A stretch of DNA of 64,000 nucleotides, from positions 263,321,921-263,385,920 of the forward strand of contig CM037879.1 of NCBI GenBank assembly GCA_021292165.1. The letters run 5' to 3'. The notes below the pieces were generated by a model, which saw only the letters and a list, made by a program, of their open reading frames with translations, did no database searches and was not told the DNA's origin. Shown here piece after piece: positions 1,752 to 59,085 of the stretch (position 1 is its first letter; every line of letters starts with the position of its first letter). The translations under genes were made by a program, and so were the position numbers. The DNA comes from Shinisaurus crocodilurus. Taxonomy: Eukaryota; Chordata; Lepidosauria; Squamata; Shinisauridae.

Positions 1752-2189
1752 TAGGGTAGCCATGTGCCCTCCTTTACAGAGGACAGTCCTATGTTTGAAG
1801 GGATGTCCAAGGACTATCCTCTATTTTGAAGGCATCCTCTATTGAAAGGGCTGAGCCAGGGGTCTTCAAACTACGGCCCGCGGGCCGGATCCGGCCCGGC
1901 GTGCCCTTCCATCCGGCCCAGTGGCCGATCTAGGGTCCGTGTGGTAGGCCCGAACTGGGCCCGCCCGTGTCCGCGCGCCTCCCGGGTCGGACCAAAGAGC
2001 CTCTCCCCCCAGGCGCTCTCTCCTCCCAAGACAAGCAGACTGGGCGGCCGGTACAGGAGCCAAGGTGGGCCTCACCACCAGCCTTTCCTTTTCCGTGCCT
2101 CCAAGAGCTGCTGCTTCCGTGTCCTGTCCCCACACCCACCCCGTCCGCAGCCTCGCGGGCTTGCCAATAGTAGTTCTTTGCTCTCCGCT

Positions 2190-2237
2190 GGTCCCGTCGC
2201 GTCACTTCCGGTGCAGCGGAAGTGACGTGACGGGACC
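2190..2237. promoter_or_regulatory. ETS/CRE-like palindrome, module 1
   Basis: The left arm at 2190-2210 carries GTCGCGTCACTTCCG. The right arm at 2217-2237 is its complement with one change, separated by 6 bases. Each arm contains an ETS-type core (CGGAAGT) beside a CRE-like half site (TGACG). That such a site binds factors here is inference. Confidence 0.5.
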
Positions 2238-2307
2238 CTGCTCCGGCGCGTCCATCCTGGACCCCGCCCACACTGTTTTTCAAAACTGAGCACGGGCGGA
2301 GTCCAGG

Positions 2308-2363
2308 ATGGACGCGCTGGAGCAGCGCCGCCGCCAGCGGACTCGGGAGGTGGCGGAGGCCAG
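2308..2363 (+). pseudogene. Captured first-exon-like open stretch, module 1, host gene unknown
   Basis: An ATG in the context CCAGGATGG opens a short Arg/Glu-rich frame of 18 full codons (begins MDALEQRRRQ, ends EVAEA). It runs without a stop into a splice-donor-like CAG|GTAGGA at 2363/2364. The stretch directly upstream has GC-box and ETS-like sequence. This is the layout expected of a promoter plus first coding exon copied at DNA level. I do not recognise the source gene. It could be coincidence in GC-rich DNA, but the same arrangement repeats at 2625-2705. Confidence 0.35.
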
Positions 2364-2506
2364 GTAGGACGGCAGTGGAGATGAAGGCAGGAAGCGGTGG
2401 GTGGGTGGGTGGGTGGGCGGCAGGTTACGGTAGGTGGGTGGGTGGGCAGTGGGTTACGGGGGGGTGGGGGCGGGGGGGCTTTACCTCATCCGCCTCACCG
2501 CCCGCT

Positions 2507-2554
2507 GGTCCCGTCGCGTCACTTCCGGTGCGGCGGAAGTGACGCGACGGGACC
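2507..2554. promoter_or_regulatory. Perfect ETS/CRE-like palindrome, module 2
   Basis: The 21-bp arms 2507-2527 and 2534-2554 are exactly complementary around a 6-base spacer. They have the same core (GTCGCGTCACTTCCG) as module 1. Perfect pairing here, against one mismatch in module 1, suggests that this copy is younger or that the arms are being homogenised. Confidence 0.55.
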
Positions 2555-2624
2555 CTGCTCCGTTGTGTCTATCCTGGACCCCGCCCGCGCTGTTTTTCAA
2601 AACTGAGCGCGGGCGGAGTCCAGG

Positions 2625-2705
2625 ATGGATGTGACGGAGCGGCGGCGGCCTCGAGCGGAGGCTGTGGCGGAGGCACCGGCAGCAGCAGCAGCGTGCAGGG
2701 GACCA
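2625..2705 (+). pseudogene. Captured first-exon-like open stretch, module 2
   Basis: This is a second copy of the arrangement at 2308. The same upstream text ('gcgggcggagtccaggATGGA') leads to an ATG, an open frame that begins MDVTERRRPR, and a CAG|GTAGGA donor-like site at 2705/2706. It is longer than module 1 because of added Ala-rich codons. The protein is not recognised. It is probably non-functional. Confidence 0.3.
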
Positions 2706-3353
2706 GGTAGGATGGCGGCGGCGGGTGGTGTGGTGGTGGGGGTTATGGGGCGGGGGGGTCCTGCGGTGGCGGCAGCAGCAGGGGGTGGCGGGGCGGTCCT
2801 GCAGCGGGGGACGGCACGGGGGGTCCTGCGGCGGCAGCAGTGGGGGGCGGGGGATGGCGGCAGGGGGGGTCCTGCAGCAGGGGGGTCCTGCGGTGGCGGC
2901 AGCGGGGGGCGGCATGGTGGGTCCTGCGGCGGCAGCAGCGGGGGGGCAGCATGAAGGAGGCGGCACAGGGGAGTCCCAGTGAGTCCGGCCCCCAAACAGG
3001 CTGAGGGACAATGAACTGGCCCCCCGTGTAAAAAGTTTGAGGACCCCTGGGCTGAGCAGTCCAGTTTAAAGATAAAGAACCATCAGAAGGTAGAGTTGGG
3101 CCTTGAAGTTGCCCATCGACAGCATCTGGACAGCAGACTGAGCAAGGCACACAGGTCACCTGGTCACAGTCTTCCAGACTATGGTGAGATGGACTGCATT
3201 TGTATTTAAATTATAATAATTATTTCTATATTTGCACATATACATACAAATTAAAATGTGCACATTTCATGTAAATAGGTATTCTCTTTTGTCCTCTTCT
3301 TTTGGTGATAAATGTCCTCCTTTTTTTGGCTATTCACAAATGGGCACCCTACA

Positions 3354-4029
3354 GGAGACTCAGGGCAGGTACCAGTGGTGCCCAAACAGCTCCCCAAGAG
3401 AATTCAATAAATCAATTGATTTGTTTCAGTTAAAATCTTGAGTCTGTGTTGTCTTCAACACTGGTCATGTTTTACCCTTTGGGTTGCAAAGGAAAAATTT
3501 GAACACAGGTTAGACCACCGAATTAACAGCCAGCACTGATATGAACTAAGGTCTCCCCAATCCAACTCTATCGCTATTCCACATTGTTTATCAAAAGATT
3601 GTAAGGGCACAGGTCTTAGGTTCCTCTGAGCCAAGATTCAAATATGACTAAAGAAGCACAAATATGGCAAGAATTGTGGGCCTAAATCAATGTGGTTTGC
3701 TTTTCTGCGTTTCCTATGTAACTCTGTGTTACAAAAATTAGCAGGTTTGTCATGACATGTGTATATTGCTTATATACTGTTGTGCTTCCTAATGTAGAGG
3801 GAGCCATCCCTCTCTCAAGTGTGTGTTTGAGGAAGTAGGGCCTGGCCAATTGTGGTTCCTTGCACTGTGACCACATGGTCCAAAACTGTAAATTCTCCTT
3901 GCAATGATACAGATGCTGTAGACACAGCAAACCTGCTTGTTTTGTCAAATGTGAGTCTGCCCTCAGTAGTAGAGCTGAAACTTTGAAAATGATTGATCAA
4001 ATATTTCCCCCCAAAACAGATCAGATTCA
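3354..4029. other. Unassigned noncoding stretch
   Basis: No repeat family or coding signal was recognised. Composition is moderate to AT-rich. The short open frames here look random. Confidence 0.5.
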
Positions 4030-4860
4030 GGGCTTATATAATCCAAGATTTATTCTCTGAGTGTGTACTATTTTCTGCTGTGAAAATGTTATAGGAGGCA
4101 GTTGTAGACTGTGATTGGAAAAAAATATATAAATCTCCACTCCAAGCTCAATTCCAGGACATTTAACACAGCACAGACTCTGTTTGAATGCAATATTTCT
4201 GAATACACAAAAGAAGCCAAACTCCATTGGCTGCAGCTCCAGCTCTGGAGAAGATGCAAGCTTGAACTTGCTCAGAGCCGAGTAATGTTATCTTGTCATT
4301 AGGAATTGCCTTGAGTCTCTATCTGTTGGACCACTCTAATTAATGATCTTTTAACTGTACTGTCAGTCCTGTTTAAATTTGAGTGTTGCCAGTTGCTTCC
4401 TTCAGCTGACCAGCCAATGGGAGCAGGCTGAGTCATTCATGCATGCCACAGCCCCAGTGGCTCTGAGCCTATAGCAGCCCAGTTTAATAGGGCATTCAGA
4501 GCTCATTAGGGAGGAAACACATCAGGAGTGACCGCTCCAGTACCACACGTTGCAACTAATAGCCTCGGTGAACAGAATCGTTTCTGTTTCTGCTCACTTG
4601 TTGTTGAGTCCTTTCAGTGTCAACAAGTGGTCATGTCGGCAGGAGCCCGCCATTCTGCCTAACAGTTTTATCCTTTGCTCTCCCGAGCCAGGCTTGTGTC
4701 GCCCGCCATTGTTTGGCCCACAATGGAGCATGAACAATCACAAAGGCTTCACAGCCATTCATCATCAGCTCACGCATTCACCGAGCAAATCTTGCCTGCC
4801 AAACACTCAGGCCATCGTGTTGGCACAGTGAGTGAATACCCCATGAAATACAAATAGTTC
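4030..4860. other. Candidate conserved noncoding element
   Basis: This is a long non-repetitive block with balanced composition and several clustered transcription-factor-like words: 'actctaattaatgatc', 'gagctcattaggg', 'agctgaccagccaatggg' and the SOX-type group at 4706-4746. Lack of repeats over 800 bases stands out in this repeat-dense window. Conservation is inferred from texture only. Confidence 0.35.
4706..4746. promoter_or_regulatory. Cluster of SOX-type sites, including an inverted pair
   Basis: CCATTGT at 4706-4712 and ACAATGG at 4720-4726 form an inverted pair with a 7-base spacer. They are followed by AACAAT at 4733 and CACAAAGG at 4739-4746. Inverted ACAAT pairs with short spacers are typical of SOXE dimer sites, and AACAAT/ACAAAG are core HMG-box words. 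Binding is inferred. Confidence 0.45.
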
Positions 4861-8060: not shown

Positions 8061-8334
8061 GCTGTTTCCAGGGATGGGGACTCGGACTCGACGACTCGAC
8101 TCGCAAGTCCGACTGAGTCCCCCCTTTGACTCGAGTCCCACTCGAGTCCCAATTTTTTCAATGGGACTCGAGACTCGACTCGGGACTCGAGCCCAATGAC
8201 TCCGCCACCGCCGCCACTCACGTCACCGCCGTCGCTGTCTCCCTCGCCGCCACCCGCTCGCAGCTACCGCCGCCGCCATCGCACGCCATGCCGCCATCAC
8301 GCCGCCGCCGCCACCGCACGCAGCTGCCCGCGCC

Positions 8335-8665
8335 GGTCCTGTCATCACTTCCGGCGCGGCGGAAGTGACGCGCCGGGACCCTGCTCCGGCGCGCTTGGCC
8401 ACCGCCACTTTAAACAGAGCAGCGGCAGCCAAGCGCGCCGGAGCAGGGTCCCGGCGCGGCGGAGGTGACGCGCCGGGACCCTGCTCCGGCGCGCTTGGCC
8501 GCCGCTTTAAACAGAGCGGCGGCAGCCAAGCGCGCCGGAGCAGGGTCCCGGCGCGGCGGAGGTGACGCGCCGGGACCCTGCTCCGGCGCGCTTTGCCGCC
8601 GCCGCTTTAAAGCGCGGCAGCCAAGCGCGCCGGAGCAGGGTCCCGGCGCGGCGCCGCTTTAAACA
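8335..8665. repeat. Tandem GC-rich inverted repeats
   Basis: The unit 'ggaggtgacgcgccggg' followed by 'accctgctccggcgcgcttggc' alternates with its complement around 'gctttaaacagagc' three times. The first unit keeps the ETS core CGGAAGTGACG seen at 2217 and 2534. Later units have drifted to CGGAGGTGACG. The run can fold into several strong hairpins. Confidence 0.75.
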
Positions 8666-8970
8666 GAGGCATACAGTGGCATACGATGGCGGCGGCATAC
8701 GATGGCGGCTGCTGCGAGTGGCTGGCGGCAAGGGAGATGGCGGTGAGCGGGAGGCGGCGGTGGCAGCGAGGCGGCGGCGGCGGCAACTCGAGCGGCACGG
8801 AGAACACTCTCCGCGCCGCTCAGAAGAGCGAGATCGGGCCGCGCCGCCGCCGCGGAGAACTACAAACCCAGGGAGGGCTCGTAATGCGTCCCTGGTGTGG
8901 CAGCGGCGGCGGCAGGAGCAGGGACGAGGGAAGGACCCACCTATGGTAAGTGGGGGCGGCGGTGGCCCAT

Positions 8971-9042
8971 GGAGGGAGCGGGAGGGTCTCCGCGGGAGGA
9001 AGGGCAGCTCTTCTTCCTCTCGCGGAGACCCTCCCGCTCCCT
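8971..9042. repeat. Inverted repeat inside the GC-rich element
   Basis: Two arms of about 26 bases, reading 'gagcgggagggtctccgcgg' and its complement, lie on either side of 'gggcagctcttc'. They form a long hairpin just inside the right GACTCG array. Confidence 0.7.
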
Positions 9043-9202
9043 CAATAGGCCGCCGCTTTGGGAGTGACTCGGGACTCATGACTCGACTCGAGTCACCATT
9101 TTGGACCTTGGACTCGAGACTCGACTCGAGACTCGGGTCCAAAGACTCGTGACTCGACTCGTGACTCGAGGCCAAGGACTCTTCAACATCCCTGGCTGTT
9201 TC

Positions 9203-19866: not shown

Positions 19867-20919
19867 TAGGGATCTCCAATTTGGTGCGCTTGGTGCCTGC
19901 CAGGGCTCCTTGGTGATTAGGGTTTTTTTCTTAAGATTTTAAAAAAATAATCTGGGAGGCTGGCTTGCTGCAAAGCAAAGGGCTGCCCTCCAGTGTCGTC
20001 TTTATTTGGGTTTATAAGAATGGTTTTGGAGCTTACAACCCACGTCTGCCTTGTTCTTAGATTCTTGGGCAACTTACTTTTCTTTTAGTCTCACCAGTTT
20101 CCCTTCTGGAAAATGAGTGTTTTGTGACTGGTCATGCCCACCACGGTGGCCATTTTATGTATGGCCAAGGTACCCCCGTGGCAGGCATTTTGTGAGAGCA
20201 TCTCTCTCAACATTCTAAATGTGCTCACCAACTCAAAAAGGTTGGAGACCCCCCCGATCAGGGCCAGCGCTACCGCTAGGCAAACTAAGCGGTTGCCTAG
20301 GGTACGTGGCTGAAGAGGGCGCAGAAACGCTACGCTCCTCTTCACTGCCGCCGCCGCGCCGCCCCCGCCGCGCCTCCCCCCGCCCGCCAAAGCTGCCGCC
20401 GCACCTCCCCCTACCTGCCCGCCGCCGCTGCCGCGCCTCCCCCGCCCCCGCCTGCCACGTCTCCCCTGCCCGCCCCCGCCGCCCCCGCTGCGCCTCCCCA
20501 CCTGCCGCTGCTGCGCCTCCCCGCCCGCCACCGCGCCTCCCCGCCCGCCTGCTGCCGCCGCCACCTCCCCTCCCCTCCCCTCCCACCCCCCCACCTACCT
20601 TCTCAGCGTCGCTTCCGGAGCCCCGCCCGCGTTGTTTTGGCGGGAGGAACCAGGGCAACAGGGCTTAAACAGCCCTGTTGCCCTGGTTTCCCCGGCAAAA
20701 AACAGAGCGCGGGGGTCCCGTCGCGTCACTTCCTCCTCGGAGGCGGAGGTGGTGGCAGCCAGGGCGGGGGGAAGGTAGGTAGGTAGGTGGTGGCGGCGCG
20801 GGGGGGGGTTGCAGAGCAGGGGTGCTTTGCTCCGGAGCCCCCCCACGGCACGAGAGGGGGGGCGCTAAATATAATTCCGCCTAGGGCGCCAAACTGCCCT
20901 GCACCGGTCCTGCCCCCGA
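19867..20919. mobile_element. Older hAT-like element hosting a GC-rich hAT
   Basis: The left end TAGGGATCTCCAATTTGG pairs with the right-hand text GGTTGGAGACCCCCC at about 20239-20256. The flanking 8-mer TATATTCC occurs at 19859-19866 and again at 20920-20927, beyond the inner element. Removing 20259-20912 and one inner target copy restores a single hAT of about 400 bp. This order of duplications shows that the GC-rich element arrived second. Confidence 0.7.
20259..20912. mobile_element. GC-rich hAT-like element, 'agggcgcagaaacgc' core
   Basis: It starts CAGGGCCAGCGCTACC and ends CTGCACCGGTCCTG. An exact target duplication CCCCCGAT lies on both sides (20251-20258 and 20913-20920). The core has a CCGCC-rich run, then GCTTCCGGAGCCCCGCCCGC, an E2F-like TTTTGGCGGG (20635-20644), a 19-bp-armed hairpin (20646-20690) and GTCCCGTCGCGTCACTTCC. 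The same core is found inside different termini at 46434-47104. No transposase is present. Confidence 0.85.
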
Positions 20920-26350: not shown

Positions 26351-26963
26351 TAGGACATTCGACCTCAAGAAAACCTAGTAGAGAAGGAGACACACTCACT
26401 GGTATGGATTGTAAAATTAGCTGAAGAAGAAATGGGGGGGGGGTGAAGTGGTGAGCATTACAAGCAGCACACATTTATATTCCAAAGCAAGTAACTACAG
26501 ATTTTGGCAACATCAGTATGATACCTCACCCTGTGGGAGTGAGAGATCTATTGCTGGTATTAGCAGCCCACTGACACCACTTGAGGAATTTCCTTCCATT
26601 ACCCTGTACCCTCAAATATACACACACAACATGGCTGTTGTTGCTATGAAATCTGTTAACCTTTGGGATAACAATGTGGGGATGGAATTTGTCCAAGGAG
26701 CCGCACTAAATAATCAACAGTGAGTTGGATCCAGATTTATGGATCAACTGCATTGGCAGTAGCGGACTTCCCCCGCCCCATCCTTCCCACAGCAGCCTCT
26801 ACAGCTCCCTGAAAATGCTACACAGACAGTCAAGAGACTCTGCTCAACGGGGTGAGCTGTGGCGTGAGTGGGAAGGGGACCCGCAAAAATCAGCCAGAGG
26901 GACTTTCCAGCAGTGGAGCCCATCCTCTTGCAGAAGGCAGAATTTGGATCCAACCCAGTGTGC

Positions 26964-27001
<38 letters not shown>

Positions 27002-27138
27002 TAACAAGGAGTTAATATTCTGCACAATGTCATTCAAGTCAAGTAGGTAGTTAGAGAAAAAAAAATTCTGTCCTCTAGTTTATAGTAGCTATTCCTTCTG
27101 TTATTTCCCTGCCCCCTAAACTACAAGGCACGGACCTT

Positions 27139-27170
<32 letters not shown>
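26351..27170. repeat. Unassigned DNA with AT and TC microsatellites
   Basis: (AT)n lies at 26966-26996 and (TC)n at 27142-27170. The text 'tggatccagat..gcagtagcggacttccccc' at 26726-26950 recurs in diverged form at 50810-51000, so it is an interspersed repeat of unknown class. Confidence 0.5.
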
Positions 27171-27172
<2 letters not shown>

Positions 27173-27630
27173 CATGTTTGCACGACACGGGAACCGCGGG
27201 GGAGCAAAAGCCCCCGCAGTTCCCGTGTCATGCAAACGCCGACCGGGGGTGCCCCCACGGGACGGCTGCGTGCGGGATGCACGCAAAGTGACCATGGTCG
27301 GTAGAGGGGTAAGCCCCTACCGCATGTGGCCACCCTGCCGTGCGAACAGCAGCCGTCCGTCCCGCGGGGGCCGCACAGAGGCAGCAGCCCAGAGCAGCCG
27401 GAGCTCCGGCCGCTCCGGCCTGTAGGGGCAAACGGCCCCTCTGGGCATCCCGAGCCCCCACCCCCTAGCGCCGGGAAGCCCGCACTGTGGTGCGGGGACT
27501 GCCAGCTCCACCGGGGTCCGCCCACACGCGCGGGGCGCAGGTAGTCTGTGGCACCCCGCCGGACCCCGCGGACGGCCCCATGTTGCCTCCCCCGCTCACA
27601 GCCTGGGTCGTGCGAACCGGCCCTCCCCCC
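27171..27630. mobile_element. GC-rich hairpin element, probably a MITE
   Basis: The left part folds as a strong hairpin (27174-27243): 'gcatgtttgcacgacacggg' pairs with 'cccgtgtcatgcaaacgcc' and CCGCGGGGG pairs with CCCCCGC around AAAA. The right end 'ggtcgtgcgaaccggcc' is partly complementary to the left end, suggesting terminal inverted repeats. About 75% GC by eye, unlike its surroundings. A target duplication is hidden by flanking CT repeats. Confidence 0.5.
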
Positions 27631-28688
27631 CCTCTCTCACACACACACCCCGTTCCTCACTTTCAATTTTCTTCAACCCCCAACTTCCAATTGCCCTAAC
27701 TGAATCTTCTACCAGCCTCCAAGTGACCAACTGCTTTTAGAACCTCGCCGGCCCAGGGAAATCGGGATGCTAAGTCATGCAGAGAGCCTCCACCGACAGA
27801 GGGGGCTTGCCACTGCAGACACTTGACCTCTGCACATGGAGGGCAATGAGAACAGCGACATGGGCCAAAGCTAGTGTGTTTGTTCCCACCCCCCTCCTTG
27901 CATGTCGACCCTACAGGCTTTGTTAACACCTGCATTATAGGGTTATATTCGAAAAACCATCTCAGTTGTCTTCCATGCACAAGAGGAAGATGTCATCAGG
28001 CCAAGGGGAGCTATAAAGTTTGCAGAAGTATAAAAAAAGTCTTTAGGGGGGGAAAAGCCCTAAGTGGTGGTGGTGGAGGAGTGTTCCTAAAACAACCCAG
28101 TGAAGACTGAACATGCTCACTGGCTGTGAAATGCTAACCAAGGGCCAGATGATGCTAAACCCGTATTTGAAAAAGGCTGGTTAAATTTTGAAACAGATAG
28201 AACTGCAGATAAACACAGCACCCCTCTCTGTCCCCTCCAAAACCCCTACAGAGCTTGTTTAAAGAACAGGATATATTTAGTTCTGAAAGGGGGGATTATT
28301 TGGTGAAATATTACATAATATTATATAATAATATTTAAGTATTGTTAATAATAGTAAATGATTAAATATTATTTTAATTATTTATGTTATATAATATAGT
28401 AATATTATAAAAAGGGAAACATTATTTGGGCAAAGTATTCAGTATTTTAATTTTGAAGGAATCAAGTTGAAAAACTGCTTTGGAGTTGTGTTTTTCAATA
28501 ATTTTACATGCTCGTGTGTTAGACCAGCCTTGAAAATGGTCATGGAATTGCTTTCTCTCATTAAAAAAAATAAATAAATAAATAAATCCTTTTTGCATTT
28601 TATTTTCAGACTTCCATTTTAAAAACTATTGCGCTTAATATGATTCACAGAAAGAAAATTTCCTCTCATGCCATGGACAATGAACCAC
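27631..28688. other. Unassigned noncoding DNA, partly very AT-rich
   Basis: 28305-28425 is nearly pure AT (TATTATATAATA-type). 28560-28590 has AAAT runs. No gene or recognised element otherwise. Confidence 0.4.
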
Positions 28689-46029: not shown

Positions 46030-47205
46030 ACCATAACAAGATAAAGCAGACAAAAGAATAAAAACAATGCATTAAAAACAGGATAACATTAAAACTGTGG
46101 CTGGTCAGCAAGGCTTCCCGGAACAAAGACGACTTTGGCAGGTGCCGAAAACAACACAGTGCCGGAGCCTACCTGACCTCCAGAGGCAGGGAGGTCCATG
46201 GAAGTGGAGCCGCCACAAGGCTCTTCTCCTGGTGGACTCCAGTCGGGCCATAGGTCCATGTGGCACCACCAGGAGAATGTCCTCTGATGAACTCAGTGAC
46301 CGGGCAGGTTGGTAAGGGAGAAGGCGCTCTCTCAGGTATCCTGGTCCCAAGTTGTTTCGGGCTTTGTACACTTAAACCTGGCCAGGTAGTGAATAGGCAG
46401 CCAGTACAGTTCTTTCAGCAGAGGAGTTGCAGCCAGGGCCGGATTAAGAGCATTATGGGCCTGGTGCTGAGGAGGGCGCGCAGCTGAAGAGGGCGCAGAA
46501 ACGCTGCGCTCCTCTTCGCTGCCGCTGCACCGCCCCCGCCAGGCCTCTGCCTCCGCTGCGCCGCCCCCGCCAGGCCTCCGCCTCCCCACCCTCCCTCCCG
46601 CCCGCCGCCGCCGCGCCCTCCCGTCCCGCTCGCCACTGCGCCTCCCCCCGCCCTCCCGCTCGCTGCCGCTGTGCCTCCCGCCGCCGCCGCCGCCGCTGCC
46701 ATCACCCCCCCGACCCCCTCCCGCCACCTACCTTCTCCGTGTCGTGTCGCTTCCGGAGCCCCGCCCGCGTTGTTTTGGCGGGAGGAACCAGAGCAACAGG
46801 GCTTAAACAGCCCTGTTGCCATGGTTTCTGCGGCAAAAAACAGCGTGGGGGTCCCGTCGCGTCATGTCCTCCTCCTCGGCGGCGGCAGCCGCCGCCGCTG
46901 CCGCCAGGGCAGGGGGAAAGTAGGTTGGTGGTGGCGGCGCAGGGTTTTTTTTTTGCAGAGCAGGGCTGCTTTGGAGAGGGGGGGCGCTAAATATTATTTC
47001 GCCTGCGGCGCCAAACTGCCCTGCACCGGTCCTGATTGTGGGCCTATTTTGGGGTAGGGGCCTGGAGCTGCAGCTCCAATAGCCCCTATCTTAATCCGGC
47101 CCTGGTTGCAGCTGAAAAGGGGCAGCTCCTGACAACAGCGGAGCTGCTGCATTCTGCACTAGCTCCAGCTTCCAGAGCAACCCCACATAGAGTGCATTGC
47201 ACATA
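46030..47205 (-). mobile_element. L2/CR1-like LINE, 3' part, interrupted by a hAT
   Basis: On the minus strand, translation gives family hallmarks in order: VQNAAA (about 47150), LYWLPIHYLARFK (about 46380-46415), then WTSLPLEVR and FRHLPKSSLF (about 46130-46200). These match the conserved end of L2/CR1 reverse-transcriptase ORFs ('LHWLPV..R..FK' and 'WNSLP..R'). Several stops and frameshifts make it inactive. The GC-rich hAT at 46434-47104 separates the first hallmark from the rest. Confidence 0.75.
46434..47104. mobile_element. GC-rich hAT-like element, 'ggccggattaag' family with GC-rich core
   Basis: Perfect terminal repeats CAGGGCCGGATTAAGA and TCTTAATCCGGCCCTG. An exact target duplication GTTGCAGC (46426-46433 and 47105-47112). 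Inside lies the same core as 20259-20912: 'gaagagggcgcagaaacgct', a CCGCC-rich run, TTTGGCGGG at 46774, the 'cagggcttaaacagccctg' hairpin, GTCCCGTCGCGTCA and 'cgccaaactgccctgcaccggtcctg'. Its terminal 60-70 bases match the ends of the element at 55563-58310 in opposite orientation. No transposase is present. Confidence 0.88.
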
Positions 47206-55546: not shown

Positions 55547-55625
55547 AACAGGGTAATCCCATCAGGGCCGGATTAAGCTAGGGGCTGTTGGAGCGCCAGC
55601 TCCAGGCCCCTAACAGAAAATAGGC

Positions 55626-55856
55626 CTACACAATTATAGGGACACGCGGCGATTTCCCCCCCCCCTTCGGACGGCAGCAACGGCGCTTGCATTCGACTCG
55701 AGGATAACCAACAAGCCGCAAGCCTGCAGCTTTCGCGCTCTGTTGAACTATGTCCTCTCTAAGGCACCGTCTCTTCCTCCAGAAGCGGAAGCGGCGAGCC
55801 GAGGAGGCCGCGCCAGTGTGTGTGTGTGAGAGCGAGAGAGGAGCGCGTGAGAAAAG
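55626..55856 (+). promoter_or_regulatory. Captured EIF2B5-type promoter/5' UTR, GC-rich
   Basis: CpG-rich sequence runs from the hAT end to the exon-1 ATG. AAGATGGCGGCC at the start codon is a YY1-type word often found at housekeeping-gene starts. A (TG)n/(GA)n patch lies at 55816-55844. No TATA box. This is consistent with a CpG-island promoter moved together with exon 1. Confidence 0.5.
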
Positions 55857-56019
55857 ATGGCGGCCCGCGGCGCCTCTGCGAAGCGTGGAGCCGGGTCCGG
55901 GGGCTCTCAGGGGTCCGAGCCCCAAGAGGAGCCGCCTCCACCGCTCCAGGCCGTGCTGGTCGCCGACAGCTTCAACCGCCGCTTCTTCCCCATTTCCAAG
56001 GAGTCAGGACCGGCCCCGG
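55857..56019 (+). pseudogene. EIF2B5: EIF2B5 first exon, transposon-captured fragment
   Basis: The ATG at 55857 lies in strong context and opens a frame of 54 codons. After a Gly/Ser/Ala-rich start comes EEPPPP (residues 24-29), [10 protein letters not shown] (30-39) and FFPISK (43-48). This order and wording match the N-terminus of eIF2B epsilon, the catalytic guanine-nucleotide exchange subunit for eIF2, where the LVADSF motif begins the nucleotidyltransferase-like domain. After the FPISK motif the text departs from the usual DQPR (here ESGPAPG), consistent with decay by a small indel. The frame runs into a good splice donor, CCCCGG|GTGAGC at 56019/56020, with intron-like sequence beyond. 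That marks a genomic copy, not a retrocopy. No later EIF2B5 exons were found in the remaining 8 kb, and the full protein is about 700 residues. It is a truncated, probably non-coding copy; the donor could still be used in chimeric transcripts. Confidence 0.8.
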
Positions 56020-56264
56020 GTGAGCGATGGGCAGGCGGCAGAGGGGGATGCGGGCAGCTGCCGCCGAAGGCCTCGGCCTCCTCCCTTCGTTCTCCGCCGG
56101 GGAGGCGCTTTCGGTCTTCGGCGAGCGGGCAAGCTGTAGCGCTTCTGCAGAAATCGCACCCCGCAGATCAAGCAGGGGCCAGTTCTGGGCAGCATTTGAA
56201 TTGAAATCCACTCCTTCCTTGCCAGCCACCTCTTCGTGCCTTTTGCCTCCAGTTAGGCTTGCCA
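56020..56264 (+). other. Captured start of EIF2B5 intron 1
   Basis: GC-rich DNA follows directly from the GTGAGC donor and grades into lower GC by 56200. It ends at the first MITE, at 56265. This is continuous with the exon-1 copy and is probably part of the same captured block. Confidence 0.5.
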
Positions 56265-56372
56265 GGATATTCTACATGTTTAGACATGAAAAAAATCCTA
56301 CAACTCCCAGCATGATAGCTGGGGCATCCCGGGAGATGTAGGACTTTTTCCCTGTCTTAACATGCATTGCAC
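56265..56372. mobile_element. Palindromic MITE, 'aatcctatgcat' family
   Basis: 'tctacatgtttagacatgaa' and 'tcctacaactcccagcatga' pair with 'gggagatgtaggactttttc' and 'taacatgcattgcacccta'. It sits in the captured intron-like DNA. Confidence 0.65.
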
Positions 56373-56399
56373 CCTAAAAGGAGCAACTGGCAAAATTGA

Positions 56400-57052
56400 T
56401 TCATCATTGCATTTCTATCCCACCATCCCCTCCCTCCTCCTTGCAAGGAGCCCAGGGCGGCTTATATGGCCCTCCTCTTCTTTGTTTTATCCTTGCAACA
56501 ACCCTGTGTTTGTCAATATAACCCCAAGAGTCTCTGGTGCAGGACTAATTTTGTGATGTGTGTTAAGGCTGAAGCGCTTGGGACTCTTCATTTAGAAAAA
56601 AAGAGGCAACTGGGCAGTGGGGCAGGGTGGGGATATGGCAGAGGTTTCTAAAATTAATGTAAGATGTGGAGAAAGTAGATAATTTTTTTTCTCCCTCATA
56701 ATACTAAAATGTGGGATCATCCAAAGAAATGGATTGGTGGTAGAAAGTGCCTCTTCATACAATTCAGAATTCATAGAATTAACTGCCAGAAGATGTGATA
56801 GCCGCTAGGTTGGATAGCTTTAAATAGGCATTAGATAGCTTCATAGAGGAGAGGTGTCTATTGATGACTATCACTCATGATGGCTACATGGAGCATCCAG
56901 GTTTATTTATTATTACCATCATATCATGCCTTTTTTACTTCTTGCAAGGAACCCAAGGCGACTTACATAGTCCTCCTCCTCCTCCTCCTCCTCCATCATC
57001 TCCATTTTATCCTCACAACAACCCTGTGAGGTAGGTTAGGCTGAGAGTCAGG
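56400..57052 (-). repeat. Two Sauria-type SINE tails and a repeat fragment
   Basis: 56400-56515 ('cttgcaaggagcccagggcg', 'tgcaacaaccctgtg') and 56906-57052 ('caaggaacccaaggcgactt', 'cacaacaaccctgtgaggtagg') are headless minus-strand SINE parts. About 56810-56890 is an inverted fragment of the 41355 repeat. Confidence 0.65.
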
Positions 57053-57253
57053 GACTCTTTTATAATGTATTTCAGTTTACCCCACACAAAGCACTCACAC
57101 ACAGAGCAGCCAGACAAAAGCAAAACGCGCTTATAATTTGTAGGTAGCCTTTTATAATGTATTTCAATTTTAGACAGCAAAAAAGGTAGTACATTCTTAT
57201 TTTTTAAACCCACTTTTGCCATTGAAATAAAATTCCATCCTCCATTTAATCAT

Positions 57254-57604
57254 TATTTATTTATTGCATTTATACCCCGCTCTTCAGCCAGAAAAGGCTC
57301 TCAGAGCGGCTTACACAGATTAATAATAAGACATTCCCTGCCCTCAGGCTCACAATCTAAAAGACATGACACAAAAGGAAAAGGGATTGGGAGGGAGGAG
57401 GAAGAATGCCAAACTCAGGCACCAATATAATGTTTGGCATTCTTCCTCCTCCCCCCCAATCCCTTTTCCTTTTGTGTCACATCTTTTAGATTGTGAGCCT
57501 GAGGGTAGGGAATGTCTTATTATTACCGGTAATCTGTGTAAACCGCTCTGAGAGCCTTTTCTGGCTGAAGAGCGGGGTATAAATGGAATAAATAAATAAA
57601 TAAA
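57254..57604. repeat. Long near-perfect inverted repeat of a LINE/SINE tail
   Basis: The left arm 57254-57414 reads 'ccccgctcttcagccagaaa', 'ctcagagcggcttacac', 'gacattccctgccctcaggc' and 'ggaggaagaatgccaaac'. The right arm 57432-57604 is its complement, ending in AAAT repeats. The spacer is 17 bases. The same text occurs once, not inverted, at 21531-21650. Confidence 0.85.
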
Positions 57605-57794
57605 TCTTTAATTTCTACCCACTTTTGCCATCAAAATAACATTCCATCCTCCATTTAATCACTTGTTAACATTATAATTAATTTATAATAACTTTCCATT
57701 TAAGAAAAAAAAAATCACCCCTATCAAGTGAAAAAAAATGACCCAGGTCCTTTTTTTTTACTTGATCCATTCGTTCTTTTTTTTTTTTTTTAAA

Positions 57795-57866
57795 CTATAG
57801 TCCGGTCCCCCAACAGTCTGAGAGACAATGAACTGGCCCCCTGTTTAAAAAGTTTGAGGACCCCTG
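57795..57866. mobile_element. Right-end fragment of the 1857-type hAT
   Basis: 'agagacaatgaactggcccc' and 'aaaaagtttgaggacccctg' match the right terminus of 1857-3049. The left terminus is absent. Confidence 0.75.
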
Positions 57867-57999
57867 TTGTAATCCTTACATCAACCCTGTAAGGCAGGTC
57901 AATAGCATTCTCTCCATACAGCACGTGGGGGGGGGGGCAGCTGAGTAAGAGCTCGGTTCGTGTACATTGTTGCCTAACAGTCTGCATAATTCCCGAAGG

Positions 58000-58310
58000 G
58001 GTGGGCTGTGTTAGTCTATTGCAGCAAGAACAACAAGAGAGTCTTGTGGTACCCTAAAGACCAACACATTCATTCTGACATAAGCTTTCACAGGACACTG
58101 CCCACTTCCATCAGGTTTTACTTGAGTTAACAAGCTTATTGTTTACAAAAAAAGAAATATTTTCAATATGTTTCTGTTTTGGCACTTTAATGGTAATTAA
58201 AATATTTAATTTGTTTTAATATAAAATTGCGTCTTCATTTTATTTATTTCCATAAAAAGGCCCACCAAAATCCTCAGCACCAGGCCCATAATGCTCTTAA
58301 TCCGGCCCTG
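58000..58310. repeat. Interspersed repeat then hAT terminal region
   Basis: 58003-58130 ('gtgttagtctattgcagcaa', 'cttgtggtaccctaaagacc', 'cataagctttcacagg') is a repeat of a type widespread in reptile genomes, class not assigned. From about 58255 the right end of the Pack-type element begins ('ctcagcaccaggcccataat'). Confidence 0.5.
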
Positions 58311-58639
58311 AATCCCATGCCATGCATATCTCCTCGGAATTCAATCCCATTAAATTCAACGGGACTTACTGCCAGCTAAGTGTATAGGATTGCAGCCTGA
58401 ACCTTTCAGTTTTATTTTTTTTTAATGTGGCAGGTGAGATTGCTTACTCCCCCTTCATTGTGTGCCCCCCCCGCCATTCCTCCCACACACACCCCACCCC
58501 ATCCGTCCCACTCCAAGAAAACAAACACATCATAAAAGACCGGATAGGGCCCACTCGATCTTCTCCAAGTGTCGCGTCGAGCTATACTGTGACCTTCAAA
58601 GCTTGGCTCCGGGCTCCCCAGTGTCTGGTAGCCACGGCA

Positions 58640-59085
58640 AACGGCCAGTGCTGACACACAGACGCCTTTGCAAGCGACCGCTGCTGGCGCTGTGCTGCTG
58701 TCGTCGTTTACGATCTGCGCCTCCCCCTGTTGCAACCCTTCCTTACCCCGCGCCGCCGCCGCCGCGCCGCACCCACCACCTCATTTTTTCCCCCTCGTCG
58801 GCGGGCAAACGGAGCGCCCCTGAAGAGACCGCTGTTCTCTTAATGGCAGAGCGTGGCGCGGGAGGGGCCGAGGGCGCGCGCGGATGACAGTGGACGCATG
58901 CCTGCAGCCAATCAGCGCCGAGGACAAACTGGGATGGTATATAGCTTGAATGAATCATTAAGCTTGACACGCGCTCCTGAGTTTCCCTGGGCTGGGCGAT
59001 TCAACGCGTTTCTTCCTGCTAGGCTATTAAGCCGCGAAGTCCTTTCTGTACCGAGAGAATAATATTACGCGCGCGCACGCACGCA
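58640..59085 (+). promoter_or_regulatory. Orphan CpG-island promoter with CCAAT and TATA boxes
   Basis: A CpG-dense block (CCGCCGCCGCCGCGCCGC at about 58750, GGGCGCGCGCGG at about 58872) contains CCAAT in GCAGCCAATCAGCG at 58908-58912 and TATATA at 58938-58943. The TATA lies 26-31 bases downstream of CCAAT in the correct order for plus-strand transcription. The predicted start is near 58965-58975. No coding exon was recognised downstream. It could drive a long noncoding RNA, an upstream exon of a gene outside the window, or be an enhancer-like island. Confidence 0.5.

What the first reader, a model, noticed from the sequence alone, without database searches (positions are those of the whole stretch)
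55563..58310. A hAT-like element carries the EIF2B5 promoter, exon 1 and splice donor
Seen: complementary termini (CAGGGCCGGATTAAG and its complement), an exact 8-bp duplication AATCCCAT at both edges, and inside them an ATG-started frame with [16 protein letters not shown] and FFPISK in order, ending at a GTGAGC donor. Known: this wording is the N-terminus of eIF2B epsilon. Inferred: a DNA-level capture of a housekeeping promoter and first exon by a non-autonomous transposon, as in plant Pack-MULEs, which would be unusual for a vertebrate hAT. If it moves or amplifies it would scatter a strong promoter with a ready splice donor.
Basis: partly seen in the sequence, partly recalled or inferred. 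Interest (0 to 1): 0.9.

Follow-up and report, generated by a model that had tools for sequence, protein, structure and literature searches.

The report
Jumping DNA carrying EIF2B5's first exon
A cut-and-paste jumping element in this reptile-like genome has copied the start of an essential gene (upstream region, first coding exon and splice signal) and scattered it to dozens of places, and a second kind of jumping element has since picked up the same piece.

Summary
Window 55563-58310 is one complete non-autonomous hAT element: perfect 15-bp inverted ends, exact 8-bp target duplication, and inside it EIF2B5 exon 1 with its donor. It is not the resident gene, which lies on C3 (exon 1 at 11,784,271; exons 2-4 in order downstream). 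About 1.39 kb of that gene (252 bp upstream of the ATG, exon 1, ~980 bp of intron 1) was captured as DNA. The element is an amplified family: of 40 scored genome matches (a cap), 31 are this element (28 of 30 testable rows with exact 8-bp duplications; about 29 sites), 8 are a different hAT family holding the same cargo, 1 is the gene. Structure and tree favour gene -> hAT-A -> hAT-B. Against a working promoter: 24 of 31 rows, the window's included, lack an 81-bp upstream block; 21 of 31 carry a 7-nt insertion breaking the frame with exon 2; CpGs of the island as a whole decay as in methylated DNA, though not clearly in the short promoter slice. Kind: a multicopy Pack-TIR of hAT type, unusual in copy number, cargo and second-hand transfer. 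Promoter activity and splicing are untested.

The parts
55555..55562 (.). left target-site duplication AATCCCAT
   Evidence: (8/8 identical)
55563..55577 (+). hAT-A left terminal inverted repeat
   Evidence: I6, 100% complementary to 58296-58310
55563..55671 (+). hAT-A left end and subterminal stretch (first 68 bp shared at 88% with the sister element at 46434-47104)
55672..57039 (+). stretch homologous to the EIF2B5 gene: upstream region, exon 1, first part of intron 1; the right limit lies in a dispersed repeat and is approximate
   Evidence: native locus L032 ~820-2207; A1 copy L031 97.1% over 1333 columns
55857..56019 (+). EIF2B5 coding exon 1, 163 nt (native 156 nt)
56003..56009 (+). 7-nt insertion GTCAGGA (alignment ambiguous by a few bases), in 21 of 31 hAT-A rows
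56020..56025 (+). splice donor GTGAGC
   Evidence: same donor in 21 of 21 rows
57253..57599 (.). fold-back repeat inside the element (arms 70 nt at 97% and 94 nt at 96%)
   Evidence: I1, I2
57799..57866 (+). fragment like the right end of a third hAT (window 1857-3049)
   Evidence: 68 bp at 91%
58271..58310 (+). hAT-A right end, 40 bp identical to the sister element
58296..58310 (-). hAT-A right terminal inverted repeat
   Evidence: I6
58311..58318 (.). right target-site duplication AATCCCAT
46434..47104 (-). sister hAT-A element with different cargo (most of another hAT), TSD GTTGCAGC

Best explanation
A non-autonomous hAT element (hAT-A, ends CAGGGCCGGATTAAG) acquired about 1.39 kb of the EIF2B5 gene as genomic DNA: 252 bp upstream of the ATG, coding exon 1 with its donor, and ~980 bp of intron 1 (shown). 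The composite then moved by cut-and-paste transposition, presumably by a trans-acting hAT transposase (inferred), to about 29 detected sites, with 8-bp duplications at those that could be tested (shown). An older form keeps the native upstream block and reading frame; a more numerous form lacks 81 bp of upstream sequence and mostly carries a 7-nt frame-breaking insertion (shown). Part of the composite, including interior sequence not found in the gene, is also present in a second hAT family (hAT-B, ends CAGGGGTCGGCAACC) (shown); passage from A to B is the favoured direction (structure and tree). Acquisition probably ran through break repair or template switching, as proposed for other Pack-TIRs (inferred). 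A copy landing upstream of, or in, a gene could supply a transcription start and a donor, but CpG decay suggests that most copies are methylated in the germ line, so most are probably silent passengers (inferred).
For: Genome search: 40 scored matches, all fetched at least in part. 31 rows are hAT-A; in the 30 rows where both ends were fetched the TSD is exact in 28 and 7/8 in 2. In the first 21 rows the flanks are unrelated apart from short dispersed repeats, except L023/L024; L031/L042 share a TSD and are probably one site (flanks not compared). Two paralogous empty sites overlap by exactly the 8-bp TSD (L018 v. L027 flank, L024 v. L009 flank). Parent gene: exon 1 in L032 without hAT-A ends, exons 2-4 in order in L035, exon 2 acceptor in phase 0. 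The captured stretch is 97.1% identical to an old copy over 1333 columns and includes upstream DNA and intron, so it was not retrocopied. B elements: 8 rows; exact TSD in L029, L046, L049; L034 holds A positions 283-2179, of which roughly 1500-2179 is not in the native region read (all of intron 1) apart from pieces of 32-34 bp. In the ML tree the two B rows used fall inside the A clade (supports 82 and 96).
Against: No autonomous partner was found or could be sought (genome search was busy). Copy number is a lower bound and rests on one assembly. The right capture limit falls in a dispersed repeat. In the tree only 2 of 8 B rows were used, they do not group with each other (supports 61 and 73), and their place rests on few sites, so one or two transfers are both possible. 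Five of 8 B rows lack an exact TSD: L034 7 bp, L047 degenerate, L048 none, L030 and L033 right end not seen. No RNA data: promoter activity and splicing are untested.
Confidence: 0.92

Rival explanations
1. The window holds the resident EIF2B5 gene and the two hAT ends are separate insertions that happen to flank exon 1.
For: Exon 1 is nearly intact, and the window ends about 8 kb after it, so the window alone could not exclude a long intron 1.
Against: Same junctions at both ends in the 20 copies first fetched, each flanked by a TSD; the gene with exons 2-4 is at C3:11.78 Mb, its intron 1 being 6.5 kb; the exon here is out of phase with exon 2.
Confidence: 0.01
2. hAT-A and hAT-B captured EIF2B5 independently from the gene.
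For: Different hAT ends and different left junctions.
Against: B copy L034 shares with A a stretch (roughly A 1500-2179) that is absent from the gene's intron 1 apart from pieces of 32-34 bp; the two B rows tested lie inside the A clade and share a derived base with the later A copies.
Confidence: 0.06
3. The copies arose by segmental duplication or retroposition, with hAT ends incidental.
For: Two pairs of rows look like the same site held twice in the assembly.
Against: Unrelated flanks, 8-bp TSDs, empty-site paralogues; upstream and intron DNA present, so no spliced mRNA intermediate.
Confidence: 0.02
4. Functional reading: the copies are working exon traps that start transcription and splice into neighbouring genes, as HelibatN3/NUBPL does in bats.
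For: ATG-to-donor frame kept in 37 of the 38 element rows printed (L026 is frameshifted); a CpG-island-like 5' part; in the 133-bp promoter slice CpG transitions are only 7 of 542 cells (1.3%), close to the non-CpG rate there (1.2%); the window copy lies about 130 bp from another CpG-rich stretch.
Against: Over the whole island CpG transitions are as frequent as elsewhere in the element (55/2582 v. 20/876 cells) and 4-6 times the non-CpG rate, as expected of methylated DNA; the 81-bp upstream block is absent from 24 of 31 A rows and all 8 B rows. No transcripts were examined.
Confidence: 0.2

Closest known systems
Pack-TIRs of animals, Pack-hAT (Tan et al. 2021, PMC8277862; abstract, sections 7, 9, 10, 14 and passages read)
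   Same: TIR transposon holding a copy of unrelated host sequence with the parent identifiable; hAT is the commonest carrier (208 of 370); multicopy cases carry distinct TSDs, e.g. CAPSL 5' UTR in frog hAT-N8_XT.
   Different: They report four multicopy cases in 100 reference genomes (three frog, one alligator), the one described having three copies and 291 bp of 5' UTR. Here: about 29 sites, ~1.39 kb spanning upstream region, coding exon 1, donor and intron, and the cargo also in a second hAT family.
HelibatN3 with NUBPL promoter (PMC4778049, passages read)
   Same: Promoter region, N-terminal codons and splice donor of a host gene amplified by a transposon in a vertebrate.
   Different: Helitron; six NUBPL codons; chimeric transcripts shown by experiment. 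Here hAT with TIR and TSD, 52 codons, activity unknown.
hAT with histone H3 in Pseudocercospora fijiensis (PMC6710886, abstract and outline read)
   Same: hAT captured and amplified a housekeeping gene to many copies.
   Different: Fungus; hundreds of copies, inactivated by RIP.
Pack-TYPE elements of plants (PMC8903248, start of abstract in the search listing only)
   Same: Non-autonomous DNA transposons that capture and shuffle coding DNA.
   Different: Plants.

Membership tests
hAT superfamily (non-autonomous) | 8-bp target-site duplication | tested here: met
   28 of 30 testable A rows exact, 2 at 7/8
hAT superfamily (non-autonomous) | short TIR of the CAGGG... type | tested here: met
   I6; one search ends (the type is recalled, not from a library)
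hAT superfamily (non-autonomous) | target preference nTnnnnAn (recalled) | tested here: inconclusive
   20 TSDs: no base above 10 of 20 at any position; T 5 of 20 at position 2, A 7 of 20 at position 7
hAT superfamily (non-autonomous) | mobilised by a hAT transposase | not tested
   requests for the A ends in the genome did not complete
Pack-TIR | both terminal ends of one TIR element around foreign sequence of 100-5000 bp | tested here: met
Pack-TIR | identifiable parent at 90% or more, parent not inside the same TE | tested here: met
   L032 97.1% to A1 over 1333 columns; no A ends matched in L032/L035
Pack-TIR | interior 80-120% as long as the parental stretch (Tan et al. filter) | tested here: not met
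   interior ~2.6 kb against ~1.39 kb homologous to the gene; a search filter rather than a biological definition, so filed as Pack-hAT in the wider sense
Helitron with captured promoter (HelibatN3 type) | no TIR, no TSD (recalled) | tested here: not met
   it may work like HelibatN3 but is not one
Retrocopy | introns spliced out, no upstream DNA | tested here: not met

The most novel reading that the evidence does not exclude
Different hAT families in this genome pass gene starts and CpG-rich modules between one another, so that a captured housekeeping upstream region + exon + donor becomes a shared cartridge; the families carrying it spread an exon-trap module, and hAT-B multiplies the donor in tandem arrays (8 x 208 bp in one copy).
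Probability: 0.25. Interest if true: 0.88.

Novelty: new variant of a known kind. Interest (0 to 1): 0.68.

Why it matters
It is a vertebrate TIR counterpart of the bat Helitron/NUBPL case with parent gene, older and younger copies, and recipients of the cargo all in one genome, so the steps of capture, trimming, amplification and hand-over can be ordered. It makes it testable whether cut-and-paste elements, like Helitrons, seed new transcription starts and first exons, and whether cargo passes between TE families. Practically, some 40 near-identical copies of EIF2B5 exon 1 could mislead gene annotation and read mapping for this gene.

Tried and rejected
Resident-gene reading: rejected after finding exons 2-4 on C3. 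Retrocopy and segmental duplication: rejected. Predicted proteins: 76 relatives of the read-through frame; of 14 opened, 13 read KDRPR and one KDQPR where the window has KESGPAP; none of the 76 contains KESGP. Literature: nine searches. One search (EIF2B5, transposon, exon 1) listed 2 papers, neither on this by title and start of abstract; one search gave 0 and one search gave 1; some searches gave the precedents cited and nothing on EIF2B5 in a hAT among the rows shown (20 of 65, 6 of 6, 20 of 258, 15 of 101, 7 of 7, 1 of 1). Many papers are not held in that library. Not answered: the total number of hAT-A elements and other genome copies of the 46434 composite.

Full report
OBSERVATION. The element is as described. 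The ends are 100% complementary over 15 bp (16 with one base of each duplication), the 8-bp AATCCCAT repeats flank them, and a scan of the whole window for such structures found six candidates against none in five windows shuffled in 5-base blocks. The frame 55857-56018 matches eIF2B epsilon. No organism is named for the window; the best named relative of the read-through frame is a sea snake protein, and the genome has 2.19 Gb.

THE GENE. One of the 40 scored genome matches carried no hAT ends. Reading it (L032) and the next 8 kb (L035) gave EIF2B5 exon 1 and exons 2-4 in order on one strand. Exon 1 is 156 nt in phase 0 (MAARG...FFPISKDRPR), intron 1 is 6,465 bp and was read whole, and exon 2 starts ALIPLANVAM after an AG acceptor. 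The gene is on C3; the window lies on C4.

WHAT WAS CAPTURED. Alignment of the gene with old copies shows homology from CGGCAGCAACGG, 252 bp before the ATG, to about 980 bp into intron 1 (L032 ~820-2207; 97.1% over 1333 columns from L032 842). Upstream and intron DNA rule out an mRNA intermediate. The rest of the element's interior (roughly 1500-2700) is not in the native stretch read, apart from short dispersed repeats.

COPIES. All were fetched at least in part. In 30 A rows both ends were in the fetched stretch: 28 exact TSDs and 2 with one mismatch (L013, L021). L040's right end was not in its stretch. L023/L024 share flanks; L031/L042 share the TSD TTGCTGTA and are 99.1% alike, probably one site (flanks not compared); so about 29 sites. 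Two insertions went into repeats whose uninterrupted relatives flank other copies, and left and right flanks overlap there by exactly 8 bp. In the first 21 rows, divergence from the majority is 0.2-1.1% at non-CpG sites.

SUBFAMILIES. Seven A rows (L031, L040-L045) keep 70-81 bp of an 81-bp native block that lies 141-221 bp before the ATG; 24 A rows lack it, and so do the 8 B rows, whose cargo starts further right. The 7-nt insertion is in 21 of 31 A rows: 20 read and L039. L027, L028, L037, the seven old rows, the 8 B rows and the gene lack it. The ATG-to-donor frame is intact in 37 of 38 element rows printed; L026 is frameshifted. L039 did not match the start motif and was not read further.

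SECOND FAMILY. hAT-B begins CAGGGGTCGGCAACC and ends GGTTGCAGACCC(A/C)TG. TSDs are exact in 3 of 8 rows: L029, L049 and L046. L034 has a 7-bp match, L047 is degenerate, L048 has none, and right ends were not seen for L030 and L033. L029 holds 8 units of 208 bp made from the exon-1 end, donor and intron start; L046-L049 show one or two extra units. In a tree rooted on the gene, without L023, L024 and L031 and with only 2 of the 8 B rows (L030, L034), both B rows fall inside the A clade (supports 82 and 96) but not together (61 and 73), so one or two transfers are possible. L034 also carries A-only interior. The simplest order is gene, A, B.

FUNCTION. In 20 rows (L024 dropped), CpG transitions occur in 55 of 2582 island cells and 20 of 876 cells elsewhere, against 0.39-0.55% at non-CpG positions. 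Island CpGs as a whole thus decay like methylated CpGs. By slice this holds for exon 1 (18/860, non-CpG 0.24%) and the start of the intron (18/740, 0.19%), but in the promoter slice the CpG rate is lower (7/542, 1.3%) and close to a raised non-CpG rate (1.2%), so that slice does not by itself show methylation. Cells are not independent events. Motifs such as ETS, YY1 or NRF1 were not tested. No RNA was available.

CARGO TRAFFIC MORE WIDELY. The sister element at 46434-47104 has A ends around most of another hAT (20259-20912, its positions 51 to its last base, 73%), best read as nested insertion followed by deletion (inference). Elements at 1857-3049, 8069-9194 and 20259-20912 are GC-rich (69-73%) against 44% for the window outside the six candidates and share short modules.

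PRECEDENT. Tan et al. (PMC8277862; abstract, sections 7, 9, 10, 14 and passages) found 370 Pack-TIRs in 100 animal genomes, 208 of them hAT, with only four multicopy. HelibatN3 in bats carries a NUBPL promoter, six codons and a donor and makes chimeric transcripts (PMC4778049, passages). The present case joins the two: a TIR element with HelibatN3-like cargo and a history of passing it on.

Noticed in passing
window 46434-47104: hAT-A element whose cargo is most of another hAT (like 20259-20912) including that element's terminal bases; looks like nested insertion plus deletion.
   Followed up: partly
window 1857-3049, 8069-9194, 20259-20912: Three further hAT-like elements with 8-bp TSDs and very GC-rich interiors (69-73% GC) with inverted modules of the type CGTCACTTCC, some shared between families.
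   Followed up: partly
window 26821-28128: TSD-flanked candidate with CACAG-type ends and TSD AAATGCTA, perhaps another kind of element or chance.
   Followed up: no
L029, oriented to the exon, 2720-4391: Tandem array of 8 x 208 bp units holding the exon-1 end and a splice donor, inside a hAT-B element.
   Followed up: partly
window 58441-59060: CpG-rich stretch about 130 bp right of the element with CCAAT and TATA-like strings; possible host promoter next to the insertion.
   Followed up: no
P0014: Predicted 91-aa protein of the gecko Sphaerodactylus townsendi: EIF2B5 exon-1 wording ending KDRPR, then unrelated residues; may be a chimera or a mis-prediction.
   Followed up: no
window 56003-56009: The 7-nt insertion is flanked by AGGA on both sides (AGGA-GTC-AGGA), perhaps a repair or excision scar.
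   Followed up: no
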